Below, one piece after another: positions 13,082 through 22,922 of a DNA stretch of 36,786 nucleotides. How positions within the stretch are numbered: position 1 is the first letter of the stretch; each line of letters begins with the position of its first letter. Source of the stretch: Methanococcoides sp. GTDB taxonomy: Archaea; Halobacteriota; Methanosarcinia; Methanosarcinales; Methanosarcinaceae. The stretch spans positions 1 through 36,786 of the forward strand of contig JAIORJ010000186.1 in the NCBI GenBank assembly GCA_021108185.1. Reading direction: 5' to 3'. The position numbers and the translations under genes were made by a program. Below the pieces are notes generated by a model. That model worked only from the letters and a program-made list of their open reading frames with translations. It did not search any database and was not told the DNA's origin.

Positions 13082-13352
13082 TGGGAAGTGCTCCTTTCAT
13101 TCTCAAAAGGAACTATTATATTAGAACTTTGGGGTAATGGTTAAATTGTAAAAATACTACTCTTCTAAAAATTTAACTTTTTTGAGTTCGAATCCAACCC
13201 TAGCATAGCAAGTCGGGGTAATAGGTATCTTGAAAAATAGATACTCAAAAATTTTAAAAGTCAATTCAAAACAAAATATCAAAAATTGTTTAATTCTTGA
13301 TTTGTTTGATTCATTTGAAAATCATCAATCGTATTTTATAATTGTTAAAAAT

Positions 13353-13622
13353 TTAAGTTTCTTTGTTTTTATCTGATTTTGTTTGCAACATTATTAAAAT
13401 AGCAGAAAATAGGGGCTCTGTAGAAATCCTAATTTGAATAATAAAAATAACTCTGGCAAACCTGTCAATGTTATGCACTAATACCTTGAATTTAATTTCT
13501 TTTAGCTGATTCCAGTACTTTTTTGCTCTAATTTCCTCACCATATTTTCTTTTCAGAACAGAGAACATCATTTCTGCCAGATTTCTATTATGATACAGTT
13601 CTTCATCAAATTCCCATATCAT
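13353..13622 (-). pseudogene. C-terminal fragment of an insertion-sequence transposase
   Basis: 89 codons. The part [19 protein letters not shown] plus the following [18 protein letters not shown] resembles the C-terminal end of DDE transposases of archaeal IS4/IS5-like elements (RN-x2-E-x2-FSxxKR...E-x2-x3-Y/HN-x2-R). A TAG stop sits just upstream of the ATG and the catalytic N-terminal two thirds are missing. The segment RISTEP is encoded by the terminal repeat at 13413-13430, so the natural element end lies inside this frame and the last 23 residues are read from flanking DNA. The element is dead. Confidence 0.6.
13413..13430 (+). repeat. Putative IS terminal repeat, copy 1
   Basis: GGGCTCTGTAGAAATCCT, identical to the sequence at 13813-13830 in the same orientation 400 bp away. 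It coincides with the 3' end of the transposase fragment, as expected for an element terminus. Confidence 0.6.
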
Positions 13623-13812
13623 TTTTCTACGTTACTTACCTTTGATCTTCTTTCTTTTCCTCTCTCTAAAAAAAATATATTGTTCATCACCTATCAACAT
13701 ACTAAAATTTGTATTTAGAATTTGAAATTAGAATCAACGGTTCGTATATTTTATTAGTAGTGTACACTATTTTTAATATTACTTAAAATTCTACTTTAAA
13801 ATGTAGAATTTT

Positions 13813-13830
13813 GGGCTCTGTAGAAATCCT
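13813..13830 (+). repeat. Putative IS terminal repeat, copy 2
   Basis: Identical 18 bp to 13413-13430, in direct orientation. No inverted partner was seen nearby, so this is a solo end of another element copy. A perfect 10-bp inverted repeat (13785-13812) abuts its outer side and another (13844-13893) lies inside. Confidence 0.55.
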
Positions 13831-14063
13831 CAATATTCGGACAATAATCCAATTTAAAAATATTGGGAGATGTGTTGCACGACATTGGATTATAATTTCA
13901 ATAAATGATCTAGTATAGCATGGCGACATACATAATATTTCCTCTGAGTGGGTAAAAAATTTTTAAATTCGGGGGGGCGAACAATTGGGGAATGATAACT
14001 CCTTTTAATTAGTGCTAACTGTGTTAACTTTTTGTTTAATTAATTTTTAGGAGGGAGATATCT

Positions 14064-17000
14064 ATGAAGAATGAAAATCCTCAAGGCACGGAAACAAAGA
14101 ACACCAGTGTTTCCATAGATGAAGTCTTTAGCATAGTTGATTTAATAGAAACGGAAATTAGCAAACATGTTAAGCAACGCGAAACTTACGATGAAAGCCG
14201 AGCAGGTAAAACAAGAATAGATAAAGAAACAATATTATCATCAATCGACGAGAACCTATCAATTAGCGATGCGATTCAAAGCAAAATAAATGAACACATA
14301 TCAATGCGTGTCGCCAAGTCCAGGGTGTATGAACAAAAAGCAGAAGTTGCCTTTAAAAATTTCATTCCATCGAAAGTATCGGAGGAATTGCGTAAAGATA
14401 CAACTTACATTTCCTCGGGCGATAACCAACAGACGGCTCAGGAAACGATTATCAAAGCCGACCTCACTCAAATGGGGGAAGTGAAATGGAAAAAAGGTAT
14501 TACTCTAAGCCTGTCAGATAAGGATTTGAGTGAACTTGGAATTCAAAAAGTTGATGACGGGTCTATCGGGAATGTTCAACCAGACAAACTGATGGCCTAT
14601 ATTGAAAAACGAACATTGCAGACTGAATTGTTTGCCAGAGCAGATTTGCTTACCAATTGCAAAGTAAGCAAAGTTGCTGAACAGGCCCTTGAAGATATTA
14701 TCATTCCTGAACCTGTTGAATACACAGATACAACTCAATCGGATATCTTTGAGCAAAATACTGACAGTGAAGGAAATGAATTAACAGTAGATTCTTTGGT
14801 GAAAGACCAAGTTGCCTTGCAAATGAAGCATACCACTTCCCCGGAGGCGAAGTTGAATTTTGGAATTTCGGACCGTGCAAGTCAAAAGGATATTGAGCTG
14901 GATACGAAAGGATTCAACATAAGCGGTGGTCCGGCAGATGTGGCTGCTTATCATGACTTTTATGATCTTCAGATTGCTTTCCGCCATATATGGACTGAAT
15001 TATTCGATCAAGAGTTGGCTAAAAAAGGAAAAGAGCTTTATGAGGAAGCTCTCAAAGAAAAAGACTATAAAGGTATAAAAATACCGAAAGACACGGTTAC
15101 CTCAGTTGAGGAGCTTAAACAGTTTAAGGACTACTTGCGTCACACCAAAGAAAAAATCGCTGGTGATGATCCAAGATTTAAAGAGGTAAAAACCTATCTT
15201 TTGCCGGAAATAACGGCTTTTCAATGGAGCTGTTTGGACGAGCCAACACAAGATGCAATCTATGGTCTAATGCTCAGTTTGAAGGCAAGTTCCTCCACAT
15301 CTGGTTATGCTCCAGGTGCCGCCGGAAAGGTGGTATTTCAGGAACAAACAGATGCTCGAAAAATACTTGTTACTGCTCTTAATAAAAAAAGCAGAATTGA
15401 AAATCTATTTGAAGATCTGGAAGAACGTTTGAAGGGAAAATACTCATTCGATGTTTTTGCAAAAAACGCCATCAACTTTGGTATCCTTGTTAACTATAGG
15501 CAAAAGTGGAACCCGCTGAATTATCAAGTCGGTGAACTTGTATCTACTATACCAATGGCTCCAAAGGAAGTACGCCGATATACAAAGAAAAAAGTCGTAA
15601 AAAAGAGTAGGGCCATCAAAGAAATAGAGAATGCCTTACAAATCAAAAAAATGGATTCTTCTGATACCTATCGTTCACATGCCGAGATTATTCGCCGTGC
15701 CACGAACAAAACAAATTTCAACCATACGGCTGAAGGAGGGGTTAATTTTGCTGTTTGGAACGCAAAAGGAAGCCATAGTATGACAATTGATGCTGCCAAA
15801 CACTCCTCTCAAACAAAAAAGGAATTTCGCGAAGCCGTATTAAAGGCAGCACAAGAATATAAAAATGAATATAAGCTGGAGATAAATACGACTACCAGTG
15901 AAGAATATGAAGAGGCAACATCAGGCGAAATCAGTAACCCAAATGACGAAATTTCGGTTACGTACTTATTTTATGAACTTCAGCGTCGTTATGAAGTGAG
16001 CGAAAAAATCCATAAACTGACTCCGGTGGTATTAGTAGCCAATGAAGTACCTCGTCCAGATGAAATTGATGAAGATTGGCTGCTGGCCCATGATTGGATT
16101 TTAAGACGAGTGATCCTCGATGATTCTTTTGTTACCGGTTTAGATTACTTATCTGATAAGTTTGTTGGGGATGAGTTGTCAGTGGATGTACTTCAAAATA
16201 ATCTAGACATCCAGTTGAAAATAGTTGATAAGGTTACACAACAAGTAACTATGACTTCCAAAGCCCTTGAGAAAACGCAAGAGGCTCTTGATATAGCCAT
16301 GAACAAATATGCTAAGAGTTTAACCAGCAAGAATGAAGGGTTCTTGTCCGACGTTAATACCTTTTTATTTGGCGGAGCATCAGATACGTCCGAAACGATC
16401 CTGGCCCGGGCAGAAGCAGCCAAGGAAACATTCCAACGTGCCGAGCGGAAAGAAAAAGAGATGCGCACACGTCTTCAACACGAAGTAACGGCACTAGAGT
16501 CTGCGACCAGTAAATACTCTCAAGCTCTTGAAGAACAATTTAATCGCAGAACTGAGATTCTGAGACTTCGAGTGCATGTGAAAGATAATATCCTTTATTA
16601 TATGCAGGCTATTTGGGACCAGGAACCACCAGACCAGCGGTTTTTTAGACTCTACCAACTTAAAGTCCCAGACATTAAGTATACTCCTGGAGTCAAATCC
16701 GCACCTAGTGAAATAGATGTTTGGGTGGGCGGTAAAAAAACGCAATTCATAATCGATTTAAGTATTCCTGCACAAATTGACGTTGATTATAAGAGCTTAA
16801 TAGAAGTCGCAGACCTTGACAACTTGCTTGGTTACAAAGGAAATTACATGATCTTTCCACTTAAACGAAATAATCCCGTGACCCTCTATATGATGCAGGA
16901 CTATATGGATCTACAAGAAACAGCACAGCTATGGGATCCAGATGAAGCAGGCAATTACACTATAGATGAATTAAAACAATTAATTCGATGTTATTTTGAG

Positions 17001-17339
17001 ATAAATCCAGGTGCTTTTACAGAGGACGTAAGGAACAAATATAGGGATTTGCTAATTAAGCGCCTCATGGACCCCCACCATGACAAAGAAATCGTTATCG
17101 CACCGACAGATTCCCTATATATCGAGGCGTTACCAGGCAAGCATCCAATTCTCGAGGATTTCAAGCTTATCCATCGGGTAGTTGATGTTAAAAAGGCACA
17201 ATCTGAAGTGCGTCACGAAGAACTGGAGAATATTCGTCTGGCAGCCAGGGTAGTTAAAGGTGAATTTGATGACCCGGACGTGGAGAAGAAGATTGTTATT
17301 GAAAGGGATACAGACGTTAATGTCTCGACGGATTCCTAA
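14064..17339 (+). CDS. Large unrecognised protein (1091 aa) with central coiled coil
   Basis: I do not recognise a named family. The N-terminus holds two tandem helical repeats sharing SIDE-x2-SI-x-D-x-I (starting near residues 17 and 60). A segment around 285-310 contains GPADVAAYHDFYDLQIAF. Residues about 505-550 are basic and helical (YTKKKVVKKSRAIKEIENAL) and are followed by NPNDEISVTYLFYELQRRY (near 625-645). A long heptad-like coiled coil spans roughly 708-850, and the C-terminal 200 residues form a mixed domain ending LENIRLAARVVKGEFDDPD. There is no signal peptide, membrane helix, Walker motif or visible catalytic triad, so a structural or scaffold role is more likely than an enzyme. 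A very strong AGGAGG site lies 9 nt upstream. It is followed 21 nt later by the 529-aa gene, an apparent operon. The island setting suggests transfer. Confidence 0.75.
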   Translation: MKNENPQGTETKNTSVSIDEVFSIVDLIETEISKHVKQRETYDESRAGKTRIDKETILSSIDENLSISDAIQSKINEHISMRVAKSRVYEQKAEVAFKNFIPSKVSEELRKDTTYISSGDNQQTAQETIIKADLTQMGEVKWKKGITLSLSDKDLSELGIQKVDDGSIGNVQPDKLMAYIEKRTLQTELFARADLLTNCKVSKVAEQALEDIIIPEPVEYTDTTQSDIFEQNTDSEGNELTVDSLVKDQVALQMKHTTSPEAKLNFGISDRASQKDIELDTKGFNISGGPADVAAYHDFYDLQIAFRHIWTELFDQELAKKGKELYEEALKEKDYKGIKIPKDTVTSVEELKQFKDYLRHTKEKIAGDDPRFKEVKTYLLPEITAFQWSCLDEPTQDAIYGLMLSLKASSSTSGYAPGAAGKVVFQEQTDARKILVTALNKKSRIENLFEDLEERLKGKYSFDVFAKNAINFGILVNYRQKWNPLNYQVGELVSTIPMAPKEVRRYTKKKVVKKSRAIKEIENALQIKKMDSSDTYRSHAEIIRRATNKTNFNHTAEGGVNFAVWNAKGSHSMTIDAAKHSSQTKKEFREAVLKAAQEYKNEYKLEINTTTSEEYEEATSGEISNPNDEISVTYLFYELQRRYEVSEKIHKLTPVVLVANEVPRPDEIDEDWLLAHDWILRRVILDDSFVTGLDYLSDKFVGDELSVDVLQNNLDIQLKIVDKVTQQVTMTSKALEKTQEALDIAMNKYAKSLTSKNEGFLSDVNTFLFGGASDTSETILARAEAAKETFQRAERKEKEMRTRLQHEVTALESATSKYSQALEEQFNRRTEILRLRVHVKDNILYYMQAIWDQEPPDQRFFRLYQLKVPDIKYTPGVKSAPSEIDVWVGGKKTQFIIDLSIPAQIDVDYKSLIEVADLDNLLGYKGNYMIFPLKRNNPVTLYMMQDYMDLQETAQLWDPDEAGNYTIDELKQLIRCYFEINPGAFTEDVRNKYRDLLIKRLMDPHHDKEIVIAPTDSLYIEALPGKHPILEDFKLIHRVVDVKKAQSEVRHEELENIRLAARVVKGEFDDPDVEKKIVIERDTDVNVSTDS

Positions 17340-17360
17340 GTTGAATCCGGATGGTTTTCC

Positions 17361-18950
17361 ATGGCTAATCCTACAAACAACACACAGTCGAGTTCTCGTG
17401 GTACTGCAACCACGAGTACGACTCCGGATTCACGATTAAATGCGCGTCCTCATACAGTATTTCGTTACCGAGGTATGAAAAGAGAGTCAGTACAGCGACT
17501 TGACAGCTATGCAGCCTCCCTGCGGCAAGGGATGCAAGCCAGCGTAAGAACAATGTCCAATAGTCAACTTTTAGACGAGGCCAAGCTGCTGAACACTCGT
17601 CTTTTTGAATCAAAAGAAGAAATTGGTCCGCAGGAAAAAGAAGCGATTGCGGAAACCTTGATATTAATACGACAGGAGCTTGCGTACCGTATTCAAAAGG
17701 CTGCAGAACACCAAAAAACGACTCAACCGGTCCTTGAGCATATTAAATGGGAGGGTAAAGGCGGGCATGTCAATGATATCTACCCATTTTTCATGGTTGA
17801 TTATTGGTCGACCTTTGTAAAAACAAAGTCGCTGTCCAAGTTCATCCTCCCGAAGTCTGCTGAAATCGCCAAATGGACGAATACAAAACTAATAGAAGAA
17901 GCAGAAGGACTCAATAATATTTTTCAGAAGTATCTAACGGCGAAAGAAAAAACGAAAAAGAATATAAGCCCGATTGCGGACACATTAATCGTCATGCACA
18001 ATGATATGGATCGGCGGATTGGGGAGGCAACGAGAAAGCAAATGAAGTTCCCCCCCATTCTCAGAGGAGTTACCTGGCTTAGCGAGAATCTTGCAGGAAT
18101 TGCAGAGGGAGTTTCCCCGTTTTCAATGATCGATATCTGGAGCTTGTACAAAAGTTCGAAGCAACGACCGAAACGTCTTGTGAAACGATATTCTTTTGGA
18201 GATGAGGTAATAGAGGGGGATGTCCCTCAAAAACCAAAGAAATGTATAGTCCCTACAAGAATTACAGAGAAGAAGGCGGCAGATAGAGCGCGAAAAGCAA
18301 TTGATATTGCCGCTCGCTTGGCGAACTTCAAGGGGGAATTGTGGTATTACTGCATACTGCATCGGATGGGAAAACGCAATGCTGATATGTGGTGGATGGA
18401 CCAAAATGCGTTTATTGCAGCAGGCATTTTTGAAAAAGATTTGTTGGTAAACTTTAAGTTAAGGATTGAAAAAGATGCAGCAGTTAAGATTACTAAGATA
18501 GGGAATTATACACTTTCAACTAAGCAGATAACAAAACTGAACAAAATTGATAAAGATTGGGCACGAAAAATTGTATACCCTGAAGAATTCGGGATGACTA
18601 AGCATAGAGCTGATTTGGAGTGTATAAAGCTTGCAAAAGTGTTAGCTAAACCTGAACTGGACAAGTATTGGGTCCAGCATTTGAAAAATAGAAATGCCAG
18701 TAGAGAATTACTGAAAATAATAAGAGACTCATGGTGCGATGACAGGATTATCTTGACTAAATTAAGTGAACTTCGCAAGAAAACAGATGATGCATTTTCA
18801 CAGATGAAGACAATTGAAAATAGTGTGCCTAATTGTGATACTTCATCTACGGCGCCCTATCTTACCAGGAAAATTTGTAGTAGATGGAAAAAAGCGGTAG
18901 ATGACAATAATTCCTTTCTCAACTGTAAAAAAAAATATGGGGATAAATGA
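17361..18950 (+). CDS. Unrecognised 529-aa protein with an internal duplication
   Basis: The N-terminal 30 residues are Ser/Thr/Asn-rich and disordered. Two repeats of about 100 residues follow. Repeat 1 (about 65-165) begins NSQLLDEAKLLNTRLF and ends PFFMVDYWSTF; repeat 2 (about 172-270) begins NTKLIEEAEGLNNIF and ends PFSMIDIWSLY. Each is an amphipathic helical unit (with an ETLILIRQEL or DTLIVMHNDM core) closed by a W...PF.M.D.W signature. The C-terminal half (from about 285) is basic and helical, containing HRMGKRNADMWWMDQNAF, and ends in a Cys/Lys-rich tail. No enzyme motif, signal peptide or membrane helix is visible. The start ATG has only GGATGG upstream; translational coupling with the 1091-aa gene is likely. 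Confidence 0.7.
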   Translation: MANPTNNTQSSSRGTATTSTTPDSRLNARPHTVFRYRGMKRESVQRLDSYAASLRQGMQASVRTMSNSQLLDEAKLLNTRLFESKEEIGPQEKEAIAETLILIRQELAYRIQKAAEHQKTTQPVLEHIKWEGKGGHVNDIYPFFMVDYWSTFVKTKSLSKFILPKSAEIAKWTNTKLIEEAEGLNNIFQKYLTAKEKTKKNISPIADTLIVMHNDMDRRIGEATRKQMKFPPILRGVTWLSENLAGIAEGVSPFSMIDIWSLYKSSKQRPKRLVKRYSFGDEVIEGDVPQKPKKCIVPTRITEKKAADRARKAIDIAARLANFKGELWYYCILHRMGKRNADMWWMDQNAFIAAGIFEKDLLVNFKLRIEKDAAVKITKIGNYTLSTKQITKLNKIDKDWARKIVYPEEFGMTKHRADLECIKLAKVLAKPELDKYWVQHLKNRNASRELLKIIRDSWCDDRIILTKLSELRKKTDDAFSQMKTIENSVPNCDTSSTAPYLTRKICSRWKKAVDDNNSFLNCKKKYGDK

Positions 18951-18960
18951 TAAGGAGCAT

Positions 18961-19459
18961 ATGCCGCGGCTAATCGGGTAGCCGGGAGTATTTCTACCCA
19001 ACTACTTTTAAGCCGACTAAAAGGTATGCACTTTACAACAAAGAAGGAGATAATTTCAGTTTCTATGAGCATGAAATATCCTATAAGTTACATGGCTTAG
19101 GCCATTTGAACAATCCTTTTCCTAATGGTGATAAAGAATGGCATGCTGATATCTGGTTGGATATTCTGCGTTTACATTATGGGATTATAAAGCCAATAAA
19201 TATTGAAAGCAAGTATTCTTCTCTTTTTGCTACCCCACAACTTACAGTTAGTACTCCAAATGTACTAAGAAGATTTAAGAAAATTAACAAAAGGAAGCCG
19301 TGGTCAAAGCGGATAAAGCCTTTCAATTTTTGCAGTGTAGGTTTTCAGGTCATAAAGGAAGCTGAGAAACCTGTCAAGCCTTTAGCTCCTTTTTCCAATG
19401 ATCCTCAGAAAATCCGAATCATTTCTCTTCCCCACTTTCGTCCATCATCTCATCGCTAA
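18961..19459 (+). pseudogene. Fragment of a B-family DNA-polymerase-like protein
   Basis: An open frame runs from 18974 to the TAA at 19459 without any ATG; the only usable in-frame start is TTG 19106. Read from 18974 it contains FKPTKRYALYNKEGDNFSFY, then HEISYKLHGLGHLNNPFP, WHADIWLDILRLHYG, and VSTPNVLRRFKKINKRKPW followed by IKPFNF. The KRYALY plus HGLGHL-NP plus STP-x-LLRRF pattern recalls the thumb/C-terminal part of B-family DNA-polymerase-like proteins of large size; this is from memory. The body of that protein is missing upstream. The last 14 or so codons read through the 3' end of the resident ABC-ATPase gene, so the native C-terminus is lost. An AAGGAG-CAT-ATG at 18952-18963 opens a six-codon frame that a +1 shift would join to this one. 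Confidence 0.45.
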
Positions 19460-20117
19460 CTAAAACACCATCTTCGAGGGTGATCACTCTGTCAACATAC
19501 TCAGTATGCCAGTGTTCATGTGTTACCATTACAATTGTCTGGCCATGGTTATCATTCAGATCTTTGAACACATCCAGTACTTGTTTTGAGTTGTTGGTGT
19601 CCAGGTTTGCACAGGGTTCATCAGCAAACATTATGTCAGGCTTTTTGGCTATGGCTCTTGCGATCGCCACTCTTTGCTTTTCTCCGCCAGACAGTTCATC
19701 AGGGATCCTGTCCTCTTTTCCCTTCAGGCCAACCTTTTCTAATGCTTCAAGGGCGGTCTTATAAGACTCCTTTTTTGATTTTCCTTCCATCATGGAAAGC
19801 ACATAAACATTTTCAGCAGCACTCATCTCATTGATGAGTGCATAGTCCTGGAATACATAACCGACCTGCGTTAGCCTATAATAACTTCTTTCAGCTTCAG
19901 GCAAGCTAGAAACCTTTAATCCCCGAATGGTGTATTCTCCGGCAGTCGCATCGTCCAATAGTGCCAGTATCCTCAACAGAGTCGTTTTTCCACTACCGGA
20001 TGCACCCATAATGGCTACGAACTCCCCTTTCTTTATTTCGAATGAAACACCATTTAGAGCCTTGACAGCAGTTTCCCCTGACCCATAATATCTTTTCAGG
20101 TCTTTCACAACGATCAT
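19419..20117 (-). CDS. ABC transporter ATPase, MacB/LolD type
   Basis: 232 aa from ATG 20117 (MIVVKDLKRYYG). The frame extends 15 codons upstream inside the permease gene, but this ATG follows the permease stop by one base and has GGGGA upstream. Walker A GASGSGKTT, Q-loop VFQDYALI, signature LSGGEKQR, Walker B IMFADEPCANLD and switch His in VTHEHWH are all present. It powers the FtsX-like permease encoded just upstream. The 3' end overlaps by about 40 nt the antisense polymerase-like fragment, which suggests that foreign DNA was joined right at the end of this operon and replaced its terminator. Confidence 0.92.
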   Translation of the reverse strand: MIVVKDLKRYYGSGETAVKALNGVSFEIKKGEFVAIMGASGSGKTTLLRILALLDDATAGEYTIRGLKVSSLPEAERSYYRLTQVGYVFQDYALINEMSAAENVYVLSMMEGKSKKESYKTALEALEKVGLKGKEDRIPDELSGGEKQRVAIARAIAKKPDIMFADEPCANLDTNNSKQVLDVFKDLNDNHGQTIVMVTHEHWHTEYVDRVITLEDGVLVSDEMMDESGEEK

Positions 20118-20118
20118 T

Positions 20119-21327
20119 TTATCTTCCCCATATGGCTTTGAGTATGCTCTCTTTTGATACACTCCATGCAGGAAGTGTTCCGGCTATCACTGATAGTGTG
20201 AGCATGGTAATTATGCTTTGAATAAGCAGCATAGGGTCGATAACGGGCCTTATTTCCATGGTTTCGTAGAATACTACCGGATTTGCCTGGAAGTAAAGCA
20301 TGAGTGATAAGTATAAAGCCAATCCTGCGATTATTCCTAAAGAAACATAGAATGTACTAAGGAACGCATAGGACAATACTATTGATCTTGGAGTAATGCC
20401 TATTGCTTTTAAAATACCGATCTCTTTCTTTTTATTAAGTATGTTGATATAGATAATGATAAGGATCAATGCTGCACCCACGATCAAGCTCACGAACTTT
20501 GACATGATATCTATAGCACCCATACTTTGCATTGCCTGCTTTATGAGGGTCTCTGATTTATCAGCCCATGTGAAGACCTGCTCATTCACCCCGGCTTCTC
20601 TGATCTTGTCCTGGATCTGTTCTTCAGTCCCTTGCTTGTCGATCCTTACAACTACACTGGTAGCTTTGCTCTCTTCCAGCCCATATACTTCTTCGATCTC
20701 TTTGTAGTGGACCAGAGCATTAAGGTCAACAAGTTCAAATGTACCTTCCATGATGCCTTTGACCTTATAGGTCTTCTTTACGCCATTGCTGTATGTTACA
20801 TCAACAAGGGACCCTACCTTGACCTCACCCAGGTTATCGTATATCTCTGATCCGAAACCTGTACCTGCGATCATGGCACCGATGATGATCTCATCTCGGG
20901 AAAGCTCTCCCAGGAAATCCCCATCAGTGATAATATATGGATATTGTGATATTTCATATTCTTCTGTAGGAAGCATTCCTGTCACAGTTACTCCCACAAC
21001 ATTCTGTTTATGATCGATCGATGCCCCCACATCGAGTCTCTTCGTTGCAGCCCTTACGCCTTCAACAGCCCGGACCTTCTTCAAGACGCTATCAGCGTTG
21101 TTGATGTATGTGTTGTCGCCTGTTGGTTCTATGACAACATCCCCATAAGGGTAGTCCTGCATGAATCCAGTGAATAGAACGGTCATTCCTCCTATCATTG
21201 ATGGGAGGAACACTAAGTTCATAAAGATGAGCGAGAGAACAAAGACTATGAACACCAGTGTTTTTTTGTTCCCTCTTTTTACACTGCTGGATGCAATAAG
21301 AGCTCCCACCCTGATATCGTTTATCAT
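20119..21327 (-). CDS. ABC transporter permease, FtsX/MacB type
   Basis: 402 aa. One membrane helix near residues 24-45 is followed by a large extracytoplasmic domain of about 220 residues (MacB-PCD type: DVVIEPTGDNTYI, GVRAATKRLDVGA, DEIIIGAMIAGTGFG). Three helices follow near 280-300, 320-350 and 370-395. The cytoplasmic NKKKEIGILKAIGITPRSI coupling segment between helices 2 and 3 is the hallmark of FtsX permeases. Such proteins form dimers with the ATPase and transmit force across the membrane, for export, lipoprotein release or cell-wall control. The substrate is unknown. It is preceded by the CARDB protein gene (12 nt gap) and followed by the ATPase gene (1 nt gap): one operon. Confidence 0.9.
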   Translation of the reverse strand: MINDIRVGALIASSSVKRGNKKTLVFIVFVLSLIFMNLVFLPSMIGGMTVLFTGFMQDYPYGDVVIEPTGDNTYINNADSVLKKVRAVEGVRAATKRLDVGASIDHKQNVVGVTVTGMLPTEEYEISQYPYIITDGDFLGELSRDEIIIGAMIAGTGFGSEIYDNLGEVKVGSLVDVTYSNGVKKTYKVKGIMEGTFELVDLNALVHYKEIEEVYGLEESKATSVVVRIDKQGTEEQIQDKIREAGVNEQVFTWADKSETLIKQAMQSMGAIDIMSKFVSLIVGAALILIIIYINILNKKKEIGILKAIGITPRSIVLSYAFLSTFYVSLGIIAGLALYLSLMLYFQANPVVFYETMEIRPVIDPMLLIQSIITMLTLSVIAGTLPAWSVSKESILKAIWGR

Positions 21328-21339
21328 GTTGGAGACCTC

Positions 21340-22569
21340 TCATTCTTCTTTGTTGTCAGCAGAGTTAACGCTGCCTTCCATTAACTGCTTGATTATCTCA
21401 TCCTTTGACTTTTTCGTTCTGTAATTATTGTAGATCAGTCCACCAATAACCGCTAAGACGATCAATACGATTGCAGCTGTTCCTGCTCCACTATTACTTT
21501 CCAGGACAATAATGTTGATCTTCGTATCGATCTGTTCTTCCCCAAAATCATCACTATACGTAATGGTCACAGGGATCTCGTATTCCCCTGCTTGATCAGC
21601 TATAAAAGTAATTACTGCAGGTCCATCCTCATTTGGATCAAGAGTTCCTATGAATGATTCTTTTAATCCTTTGAATGGATGGTCAGCATAGACCCTGATT
21701 GAATTTATTGTTCTGTCGCCAGAGTTTTCGATCCTCATGGTCAATTCCACAGTCTCATCCATGTAGGGAAGGACCGGATCAACCTTCACAGATGCAAGGT
21801 TCAAACTCCCTTTTTTGTCAAGCACGGTTATTGTGATGTCATATTCATCCTTTTGCATGCCAAAATCATCTTCATACTCTATGATGACAGGTATCTCAAA
21901 CTCTCCTGACCGGTTTGCCTTGAACTTGAACAATGCAGTTTGAGTGCCATTCATGCCAAGAGTTCCAATTGTAGAGTTCTTAATTCCTTTAAACTCATGA
22001 TCTAGGCTAATTGATACAGATTTTGCTATTGCTTCCCCAAAGTTCTCTATGCCTAATCTTAAGTCAACTGTATCTCCCTCATAGATATATTCAGGACTGG
22101 TTTTGACAGAAGTGATCCTTGGTTCGGCATCTTCGCCTATCACACTGATCTCAACTTCATAATATTTCGTTGTCACTAACTCCATATTTGGATATGTCAA
22201 TCTCATCTTTATAATATGAGGCCCAGGTTTGGCATCAGAAGCTGTTCTCATGTGGTATATCAGGTGCCTTTCGCTTGTACTATAAGATAATTTAGGAATT
22301 TTAGTTACCAGGTCTTCTGTAAGTATAATGTCTGGGGGGATGCTGATTATTTCAAAGGTAATTTCTTCAGGAGCTTTGGATCCACAGCTCTCAATATTAA
22401 TCCCCAAAGTGAATTCTTCATCGATACCTATTGAACTGGGACTTATTTCCTGTACCTCTGCGTTTACGCATATCTCACCAGAACTTTGTGCTCCAGCAGT
22501 AGATATTCCTGTTAAGATAACCGTAAAAACCAATAAGAGCAAATATATCAGTCTTGTATGCTTATCCAT
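21340..22569 (-). CDS. Membrane-anchored surface protein with CARDB-type repeats
   Basis: 409 aa. A signal peptide (MDKHTR, then a hydrophobic run to about residue 27, GAQSS) is followed by an N-terminal beta domain (about 32-145) and two similar CARDB-like Ig domains (about 152-250 and 257-355). Both repeats share the pattern E/DTVxLxxxIENxGxxxxxSIxxxxxHxFKGxKxSxIGTLxxN, with a tail GE-EIPVxIxYxDDFG. A single C-terminal membrane helix (TAAIVLIVLAVIGGLIY) and a basic cytoplasmic tail complete it. This layout matches archaeal COG1361-type proteins encoded with FtsX/ATPase pairs, where they may act as the substrate-binding or adaptor arm outside the membrane. The ribosome site GAGGTG lies just before the ATG. 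First gene of the operon. Confidence 0.82.
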   Translation of the reverse strand: MDKHTRLIYLLLLVFTVILTGISTAGAQSSGEICVNAEVQEISPSSIGIDEEFTLGINIESCGSKAPEEITFEIISIPPDIILTEDLVTKIPKLSYSTSERHLIYHMRTASDAKPGPHIIKMRLTYPNMELVTTKYYEVEISVIGEDAEPRITSVKTSPEYIYEGDTVDLRLGIENFGEAIAKSVSISLDHEFKGIKNSTIGTLGMNGTQTALFKFKANRSGEFEIPVIIEYEDDFGMQKDEYDITITVLDKKGSLNLASVKVDPVLPYMDETVELTMRIENSGDRTINSIRVYADHPFKGLKESFIGTLDPNEDGPAVITFIADQAGEYEIPVTITYSDDFGEEQIDTKINIIVLESNSGAGTAAIVLIVLAVIGGLIYNNYRTKKSKDEIIKQLMEGSVNSADNKEE

Positions 22570-22922
22570 TATTTATTCACCTCAGTTCGAATCTTTTCTG
22601 TAAATTCAATAAGATCTTTAAAGATCAAGTATAATGCAGCCATTTGCCGATAACGACCCTCGATTATTTTGAACATTTCTTAATATATACTCTTCCAACA
22701 TTATATATAAAATATCACTGTAGTCGATTATAACGTATTTTGCTATCGATTTCTTGTTTTTGACCATAAAGTAGGCTACTTTATAGTCAAAGCCTATAAT
22801 AGCAGGTTTACACAATTTTGGTGATTTACTCAGTCCGATATGTTCGATAAATGGTGCTATCCATCGACTGAACAGTTGTTTTCATCAAAACGTTAATTTA
22901 TGCAGAACGCAATCTTATTCCG
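22570..22922. other. Divergent intergenic region between the CARDB operon and ccmA
   Basis: The leftward operon has a TATA-like run TATATATAAT near 22695-22710 (minus strand). For ccmA, TTAATTTA at 22893-22900 lies about 27 nt before the ATG, so the ccmA transcript would be leaderless. A long dyad lies between them at 22759-22791. A 65-codon minus ORF across the region has no support and is not called. Confidence 0.5.
22759..22791. promoter_or_regulatory. 33-bp near-perfect dyad, candidate operator
   Basis: The left arm TTTGACCATAAAGTAG and right arm CTACTTTATAGTCAAA are complementary around a single central G, with one mismatch. Its end half-site TAGTCAAA also forms the shorter dyad at 1192-1211. 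With almost no loop, it looks like a protein-binding dyad rather than an RNA hairpin. It could serve either divergent transcript. Confidence 0.5.

What the first reader, a model, noticed from the sequence alone, without database searches (positions are those of the whole stretch)
14064..18950. Two-gene operon of large unrecognised proteins in an accessory island
The sequence shows a 1091-aa protein with helical repeats, a basic helical centre and a long coiled coil, 21 nt before a 529-aa protein with an internal duplication. Neither has a signal peptide, membrane helix or enzyme motif. IS debris lies on the left and a broken polymerase-like fragment on the right, which points to horizontal acquisition. 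A two-part assembly (large scaffold plus smaller repeat protein) is an inference; some blocks of the large protein (YLFYELQRRY, LENIRLAARVVKGE) look conserved in a way I associate with uncharacterised bacterial proteins.
Basis: partly seen in the sequence, partly recalled or inferred. Interest (0 to 1): 0.75.

Follow-up and report, generated by a model that had tools for sequence, protein, structure and literature searches.

The report
Two-gene carrier-and-effector cassette in methanogens
A methane-making archaeon carries a rare, mobile pair of genes: a large protein also found in scattered bacteria and archaea, followed by a gene that differs from host to host and in several hosts looks like a toxin, so the pair may be an undescribed way of delivering toxic proteins between microbes.

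Summary
The two ORFs are real (1091 and 529 aa, 21 nt apart) and form a mobile cassette: window 13986-19016 is 95.5% identical to a copy at an unrelated site in another genus of the family. The surrounding 9.75-kb island is absent from six congeners. dN/dS is 0.23-0.46.

Gene 1 matches nothing significant in Pfam, NCBIfam, PHROGs, PADLOC or PDB sequences. Homologues are rare but occur in Methanosarcinaceae, ANME-1, Methanomicrobiales, a haloarchaeon and seven bacterial phyla. In 25 of 25 distinct loci with downstream sequence, gene 1 is followed on the same strand by a second gene that changes from host to host.

Six of 23 second genes carry a recognisable toxin-type domain (pre-toxin TG, Extensin-like peptidase, PIN-like DUF5615). 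P0002 does not. Many carry a short [SND]RG[TLIV] tag (12 of 20 versus 12 of 197 other ORFs; motif chosen post hoc).

Best reading: a two-gene carrier/effector system in which gene 1 loads and delivers tagged cargo. Carrier fold, binding, delivery route and the activity of the window's own cargo are not shown. Contractile-sheath and TcB genes were not found in the five archaeal host genomes tested, so neither looks obligatory.

The parts
14064..17339 (+). Gene 1: conserved carrier protein P0001, 1091 aa, no known family
   Evidence: ORF; homologues in archaea and bacteria; no significant family match; dN/dS 0.23-0.24
17361..18950 (+). Gene 2: variable-slot cargo protein P0002, 529 aa, no known domain
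   Evidence: ORF; found in 3 genomes, each time beside the carrier; dN/dS 0.25-0.46
13986..19016 (+). Transferred unit: both genes with short flanks
   Evidence: 95.5% nucleotide identity to G013 (another genus) with unrelated flanks on both sides
17394..17405 (+). Tag SRGT (residues 12-15 of P0002) in a stretch that looks low-complexity by eye
   Evidence: Motif enriched in partner proteins
17538..17840 (+). First copy of the internal duplication of P0002 (about residues 60-160)
   Evidence: Score 125 versus shuffle maximum 45
17859..18173 (+). Second copy of the internal duplication of P0002 (about residues 167-271)
   Evidence: Same alignment
16164..16586 (+). Predicted long helical hairpin of P0001 (residues 701-841), with a mildly hydrophobic tip at about 755-775
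   Evidence: AlphaFold2 models; tip hydropathy
16590..17336 (+). C-terminal domain of P0001 (residues 843-1091), rich in invariant residues, including MQAIWDxEPxDQR
   Evidence: Alignments A2 and A3
13135..22883 (.). Accessory island holding the cassette, an ABC transporter pair and a CARDB protein
   Evidence: Positions 13135 and 22883 are nearly adjacent in 6 congeners; Pfam calls of the neighbours
13356..13830 (.). Probable IS remnant: transposase-like fragment (13356-13622, -; by eye) and two copies of an 18-nt end-like repeat, one inside it (13413-13430) and one to its right (13813-13830)
   Evidence: Repeat search; related end sequence left of the G013 copy; no Pfam match for the fragment

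Best explanation
This is a two-gene polymorphic effector cassette. Gene 1 encodes a conserved carrier of about 1060-1370 aa. Gene 2 encodes the cargo, whose body is swapped between hosts and which often carries one or more short [SND]RG[TLIV]-type tags. Shown by sequence: strict gene order, conserved gene 1, variable gene 2, toxin-type domains in a minority of cargos, tag enrichment, and horizontal transfer within and between domains of life. Inferred: the carrier binds cargo through the tag, the complex acts outside the producing cell or on a rival, and the carrier's long helical hairpin helps the cargo across a membrane or wall. In the window, P0002 would be the cargo of a Methanococcoides-type methanogen; its activity is unknown.
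For: Gene order: in 25 of 25 distinct loci with downstream sequence a same-strand ORF of 213-797 aa follows at -17 to +178 nt. Among other genes of the loci, 93 of 264 have a same-strand neighbour within 180 nt. Variable slot: among 23 cargos the similarities at E 1e-3 are L015/L017/L020, L022/L023, a weak L011/L012 match, and the PT-TG stretch of L021 with L022 and L023. Toxin-type domains above Pfam's cut-off in 6 of 23: PT-TG in L009, L021, L022, L023; Extensin-like_C in L014 and PIN-like DUF5615 in L061, both only in scans of the C-terminal piece. Below cut-off: Tox-SHH in L008. Recurrence: the Fluviicola cargo (L014) and an extra gene behind the Hydrogenophilales cargo (L009) share the same peptidase-like domain (BLASTP E 5e-33). 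Tag: 12 of 20 cargos versus 12 of 197 control ORFs; two within 40 aa in 5 of 20 versus 0 of 197. Mobility and selection.
Against: No interaction, secretion or toxicity is shown. 17 of 23 cargos, P0002 among them, have no toxin-type domain above cut-off, and some have weak matches to non-toxin families (Sirohm_synth_C in L015, dTDP_sugar_isom in L024). As a whole protein L014 scores below the Extensin cut-off (23.9 versus 25.4). The tag was noticed and then tested in the same data; its strict form is missing from 8 of 20 cargos, lies deep in the protein in L011 and L012, and P0002 has only one copy. No immunity gene was recognised next to P0002. The carrier models are weak (pLDDT 58 and 68, pTM 0.44-0.46) and the fold matches are generic helical hairpins. 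C-terminal pieces of four cargos found nothing on plasmids beyond the source records and one near relative that also carries the module. Many loci are single MAG contigs, and one pair shows probable mis-binning.
Confidence: 0.55

Rival explanations
1. The cassette is a Tc-like injection toxin: the carrier forms a TcA-like channel and gene 2 is the injected toxin.
For: The predicted hairpin (P0001 about 701-824) aligns to the channel hairpin of TcA structures at Z 10.9-12.2; TcA entries make up 10 of the 50 rows shown and 7 of the 50. The tip region holds the most hydrophobic 13-mer of the hairpin in 10 of 14 distinct homologues. P0001 has no hydrophobic N-terminus.
Against: The same Z is reached by colicins, IpaB/SipB, YscO and PI3K iSH2, so the match is generic. 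TcB (PF12256) was not found in 13 of 19 carrier genomes, including the 5 archaeal ones. No RHS or TcA family hit in P0002 or in the carrier alignment. The tip is only mildly hydrophobic (0.6-2.3).
Confidence: 0.2
2. The cargo is delivered by a contractile injection system (eCIS or T6SS) encoded elsewhere, and gene 1 is an adaptor for it.
For: 10 of 19 carrier genomes hold a sheath gene (PF04984), against 3 of 14 control genomes. Several host groups are ones I associate with eCIS (recalled).
Against: Sheath was not found in 9 of 19, including the 5 archaeal hosts and Microbulbifer. No neighbour gene other than the cargo is shared widely among the loci.
Confidence: 0.1
3. Gene 1 is an intracellular scaffold, compartment or chaperone that holds variable enzymes through a tag, with no role in conflict.
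For: A tagged, variable client plus a conserved large partner is also the logic of compartments and scaffolds. P0001 and P0002 have no hydrophobic N-terminus. Most clients have no recognised toxin domain, and two have weak matches to metabolic families.
Against: The client domains above cut-off are toxin-type or cell-wall-type rather than metabolic. Distribution is patchy and mobile.
Confidence: 0.15
4. The pair is an anti-phage defence system or a structural module of a virus.
For: Mobile island, rarity, accessory distribution.
Against: No PADLOC hits in 8 proteins. No carrier relative in 50,697 phage records; pattern scans of viral contigs found no relative of either protein. No significant PHROGs match to P0001 or P0002; 7 further proteins gave one weak hit (E 0.0047, unknown function).
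Confidence: 0.07

Closest known systems
Polymorphic toxin systems (PMC3482391, passages seen)
   Same: Conserved trafficking part with exchangeable toxin parts; PT-TG pre-toxin domain in four cargos; described as rare in archaea
   Different: Conserved part is a separate gene of no family known to the libraries searched; no immunity gene recognised in the window; toxin domain of P0002 unrecognised
Tc toxin complexes (PMC7861908, passages seen)
   Same: Large protein with a predicted long helical hairpin next to a variable, sometimes toxin-type gene
   Different: TcB not found in 13 of 19 carrier genomes; no RHS cocoon in P0002; carrier about half the size of TcA; no sequence match; hairpin match is generic
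Extracellular contractile injection systems and their cargos (PMC11297309, start of abstract in a search listing)
   Same: Variable cargos in bacteria and archaea
   Different: Sheath not found in 9 of 19 carrier genomes, the 5 archaeal ones among them
Archaeal peptidoglycan hydrolases (PMC12352652, passages seen)
   Same: Possible archaeal weapons acquired by transfer; an Extensin-like peptidase cargo occurs in bacterial copies of this module
   Different: Those are hydrolases with recognisable domains; P0002 shows none
Thermococcales hypervariable module with Ig-domain protein (PMC8416519, start of abstract in a search listing)
   Same: Large upstream protein with variable downstream genes in archaea
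   Different: Not compared at sequence level here

Membership tests
Polymorphic toxin system | Conserved delivery part with highly variable toxin part | tested here: inconclusive
   Carrier conserved and downstream gene variable in 25 of 25 distinct loci, but that the carrier delivers anything is inferred
Polymorphic toxin system | Recognisable pre-toxin or toxin domain in the variable part | tested here: inconclusive
   6 of 23 cargos (L009, L021, L022, L023, L014, L061); not P0002
Polymorphic toxin system | Cognate immunity gene downstream | tested here: inconclusive
   Next window ORF (19106-19459) matches no Pfam family; other loci not examined
Tc toxin complex | TcB component (PF12256) in the genome | tested here: not met
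   Not found in G000, G008, G013; 13 of 19 carrier genomes lack it
Tc toxin complex | TcA fold with channel hairpin and TcB-binding domain | tested here: inconclusive
   Hairpin matches at Z 10.9-12.2, tied with unrelated hairpins
Tc toxin complex | Pentameric A subunit forming a pore | not testable with these tools
   Needs biochemistry or cryo-EM
Contractile injection system (eCIS/T6SS) | Sheath gene (PF04984) in the genome | tested here: not met
   Not found in G000, G008, G013; 9 of 19 carrier genomes lack it, the 5 archaeal hosts among them
Anti-phage defence system | Match to a known or candidate defence family | tested here: not met
   No PADLOC match at E 0.1 for 8 carrier and cargo proteins, P0001 and P0002 included
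Encapsulin-type compartment | HK97 shell fold in the carrier | tested here: inconclusive
   Not among the rows shown, but the lists are capped and the models weak

The most novel reading that the evidence does not exclude
A self-contained protein-delivery device, independent of every known secretion machine, shared by methanogens, ANME archaea, haloarchaea and bacteria. One carrier gene loads any cargo that bears a short RG-type tag, and the carrier inserts its helical hairpin into the target to pass the cargo. It would give methanogenic archaea an acquired protein weapon.
Probability: 0.25. Interest if true: 0.88.

Novelty: new variant of a known kind. Interest (0 to 1): 0.63.

Why it matters
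Polymorphic toxin systems are described as rare in archaea (PMC3482391, passages), and I know of few weapons of methanogens (recalled). Here is a mobile two-gene unit with no matching family in the libraries searched, moving between archaea and bacteria with its cargo exchanged. Being so small, it is directly testable: two proteins, one candidate tag. If the carrier delivers tagged proteins by itself, it would be a new delivery route and possibly a simple tool.

Tried and rejected
Known families: Pfam, NCBIfam, PHROGs and PADLOC gave nothing significant for P0001 or P0002; PF09986 (E 0.02) and PF07130 (E 0.0082) are below cut-off and were rejected. PDB sequence searches gave only three weak matches for the carrier (best E 0.012, in the coiled-coil part) and sub-threshold Cry8 matches for P0002 (E 0.33 and 0.67), rejected. 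Viral origin: rejected. PF12256 and PF04984 partners: rejected as obligatory; some genomes are incomplete MAGs, so single absences are weak.

Fold searches: Foldseek's best PDB rows were SMC/Rad50 coiled coils with very low TM-scores, and the viral library gave mainly long-helix proteins with low TM-scores. Encapsulin or HK97 shells were not among the rows shown; this does not exclude them.

C-terminal pieces of four cargos against plasmids: L009 and L008 none, L021 only its own record, L022 its own record and S. mexicanum. So the same toxin domain on other known toxins was not seen there. L007 (Desulfobacterales) was dropped: its whole 3.4-kb contig is 99.8% identical to Methanophagales locus L005, so probably mis-binned. 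Two archaeal matches (G037, G184) cover only the N-terminal domain and were not counted as carriers. The control set held four partner-type ORFs and duplicate loci by mistake; one search repeats the count without them (197 ORFs). Papers: searches showed no description of this module in their listings; one open-access library only.
Full report
What is there. The window lies in a 2.3-Mb archaeal genome of 230 contigs. The nearest named genome is a Methanococcoides MAG (L004; carrier 99% identical; flanks about 95-96% identical). The two ORFs are as described: 14064-17339 (1091 aa, P0001) and 17361-18950 (529 aa, P0002), 21 nt apart. Neither matches a family in Pfam, NCBIfam, PHROGs or PADLOC at a meaningful level.

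A mobile cassette. Window 13986-19016 is 95.5% identical to a stretch in G013, a genome of another genus in the same family, and the flanks on both sides are unrelated. Between the window and G013, the carrier has dS 0.097 and dN/dS 0.23, and the cargo dS 0.121 and dN/dS 0.25. Between the window and G008, which holds the cassette at the same place, dS is 0.016 (carrier) and 0.012 (cargo; dN/dS 0.46 on only 11 changes), while the neighbouring TtuA-like gene has dS 0.213. The cassette therefore spread much more recently than its surroundings diverged. Flanks from eight congeners were fetched. In six of them (G001, G003, G004, G006, G007, G010) window positions 13135 and 22883 lie 52-86 nt apart, so the whole 9.75-kb island is absent. 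G005 has a different 4.4 kb in place of 13173-19402, and the G009 contig ends too soon to tell. IS-end-like repeats stand left of the window copy, and a related end sequence stands left of the G013 copy. In G013 an ORF that looks to me like an IS5-type transposase also lies on the left (identified by eye).

Distribution of gene 1. Relatives were found in 3 of 60 near genomes. In samples by phylum: 5 of 392 genomes of the window's own phylum, of which 3 are near full-length and 2 cover only the N-terminal domain; 3 of 235 in the phylum of G436 (Myxococcota), two of them already known; 1 of 292 in the cyanobacterial phylum and 1 of 296 in Bacteroidota, in both cases only the genome used as centre. 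In the genus Microbulbifer, 1 of 48, again the centre itself. The genome scan, seeded with six P0001 peptides, gave 17 loci, one of them dropped as probable mis-binning. Plasmids: 18 of 72,556 records at E 0.01, of which 4 match over 74-83% of the protein and 14 over only 24-31 residues. None in phage records; pattern scans of viral contigs found none. By the tree's labels and the plasmid records the bacterial hosts fall in seven phyla: Pseudomonadota, Thermodesulfobacteriota, Cyanobacteriota, Bacteroidota, Myxococcota, Acidobacteriota, Chloroflexota; several are single MAG contigs. Named isolates among the hosts are Microbulbifer sediminum, Dethiosulfatarculus sandiegensis, Salinirubellus sp., Sinorhizobium and Ciceribacter, so the spread over both domains is not an artefact of binning. 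In the tree of 24 carriers, archaea sit in at least two and probably three places. Methanococcoides and Methanophagales lie in a clade with Chloroflexi and Acidobacteria rows (99/97 and 96/93). Methanomicrobiales is sister to Dethiosulfatarculus (100/100). Salinirubellus is in the same four-row clade, set apart by the Hydrogenophilales row with 94/91. The root is arbitrary, and L061 and L024 are long branches.

The variable partner. I counted 25 distinct loci with sequence downstream of the carrier: the window, G008, G013, L005, L006, L008-L024, L058, L059, L061. Dropped: L007 (copy of L005), L025 (remnant), L060 (no downstream sequence), L063 and L064 (N-terminal domain only), and short repeat fetches of the same places. 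In 25 of 25, a same-strand ORF of 213-797 aa starts between -17 and +178 nt after the carrier (ORF starts are mechanical; the L019 carrier is only a C-terminal piece and the L008 carrier is split). As a control, 93 of 264 other genes in the loci have a same-strand neighbour within 180 nt. The partner genes hardly resemble one another: at E 1e-3 the only similarities among 23 are L015/L017/L020, L022/L023, a weak L011/L012 match and the PT-TG stretch of L021 with L022 and L023. P0002 itself was found in 2 of 392 genomes of the phylum and 3 of 19 carrier genomes, always beside the carrier.

What the partners look like. Pfam scans covered 20 whole partners (P0002 and 19 others) and the C-terminal part, or for the short ones the whole, of 20; L058, L059 and L061 were scanned against Pfam by C-terminal part only. 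Above Pfam's cut-offs: PT-TG pre-toxin in L009, L021, L022, L023, and, in scans of the C-terminal piece, Extensin-like_C in L014 (26.6 versus 25.4; 23.9 as a whole protein) and the PIN-like DUF5615 in L061. That is 6 of 23. Below cut-off: Tox-SHH in L008 (E 0.036) and CdiA tRNase in L006 (E 0.18), and, against the toxin reading, Sirohm_synth_C in L015 and dTDP_sugar_isom in L024. The other partners, P0002 included, have nothing above cut-off. An extra gene behind the L009 cargo is homologous to the L014 cargo, from a different phylum (E 5e-33), and both keep DPHPxGxAxDLTG and HMxHFHL motifs expected of a zinc peptidase of the Extensin/M15 type (motif reading from memory; no convincing PDB match). 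That the same effector domain appears beside carriers in two distant bacteria is the best sign that the slot is functional.

A short tag. By eye, many partners carry SRGT, NRGI or DRGL in a stretch that looks disordered (disorder was not predicted), often repeated. Tested on 20 partners (23 minus L017, L020, L023), [SND]RG[TLIV] occurs at least once in 12 of 20 versus 12 of 197 other ORFs of 200 aa or more in the loci (Fisher 1.3e-8), and at least twice within 40 residues in 5 of 20 versus 0 of 197 (which cleans the control: 15 of 216 and 0 of 216). Block shuffling gives on average 0.05 proteins with two copies, and whole-protein shuffling 2.9 copies against 19 observed. The motif was chosen after looking, so these figures are optimistic. 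A looser form, [SNDEQ]R[GAM][TLIVC], is in 17 of 20 but also in 65 of 197 controls; twice within 40 residues it is in 9 of 20 versus 4 of 197. L008, L009, L013, L015, L018, L022, L059 and L061 lack the strict form; in L011 and L012 it lies deep in the protein; P0002 has one copy, at residue 12.

The carrier. AlphaFold2 with 16 rows gave pLDDT 58; residues 440-1091 with 15 rows gave 68.5. Better predicted parts are long strands at 470-498 and 632-659, a helical hairpin at 701-841 and parts of the C-terminal domain. VIA rows for the hairpin include many Tc toxin A subunits at Z 10.9-12.2 (7 of the 50 rows shown, 10 of 50), but colicins, IpaB/SipB, YscO and PI3K iSH2 tie with them, so no family can be assigned. 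The hairpin tip holds the most hydrophobic 13-residue window in 10 of 14 distinct homologues (not in L008, L009, L016, L017), with values of 0.6 to 2.3, mild for a membrane segment. Many homologues have an extra N-terminal region, in one of the 16 rows weakly matched by the carboxypeptidase-regulatory-like model (E 0.001); the window's protein lacks it.

Partners elsewhere in the genome. Sheath gene PF04984: 10 of 19 carrier genomes, 0 of 5 archaeal ones (3 of 14 control genomes). TcB PF12256: 6 of 19, 0 of 5 archaeal (1 of 14 control genomes). Some genomes are incomplete MAGs, but neither machine looks obligatory. Salinirubellus was not tested for either.

Conclusion. The most economical reading is a two-gene carrier/effector cassette that behaves like a polymorphic toxin system with a separate, undescribed carrier. 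Gene order, variability, tag enrichment, transfer and selection are shown; binding, export, target and toxicity are inferred. I put 0.55 on this reading and 0.25 on the bolder one, in which the carrier delivers cargo unaided.

Noticed in passing
L064 2669-5754 (G037, same order): A carboxypeptidase-regulatory-like domain gene, a protein with Cys-rich repeats LHCRTGLPDMT near its C-terminus, and a radical-SAM-like gene (by eye) stand together; it looks like a peptide-modification cluster.
   Followed up: no
L025 and 13 other Sinorhizobium/Ensifer plasmids: Only a 24-31-residue piece of the carrier matches. In the one examined (L025) it lies between nolF/glmS and virB genes: probably a decayed copy.
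   Followed up: partly
L062 10585-13860 (G013): The carrier of G013 has one in-frame TAG at the position of residue 780; intact copies exist elsewhere. This family of archaea can read TAG as pyrrolysine (recalled), so it may be broken or read through.
   Followed up: partly
L005 6768-10185 and L007 1-3418: A contig binned as Desulfobacterales is 99.8% identical to a Methanophagales contig: mis-binning between consortium partners, or very recent transfer.
   Followed up: partly
L066 8784-13196 (G005): At the same chromosomal place another congener has 4.4 kb of different genes, so the site between the TtuA-like gene and the ABC transporter looks like an insertion hotspot.
   Followed up: partly
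L058 and L011 (G427); L059 and L016 (G432): Microbulbifer sediminum and one Kofleriaceae genome each hold two carrier genes with different partner genes.
   Followed up: partly
L008 9755-13643: The Acidobacteriota carrier is split into two ORFs, perhaps a frameshift or a sequencing error.
   Followed up: no
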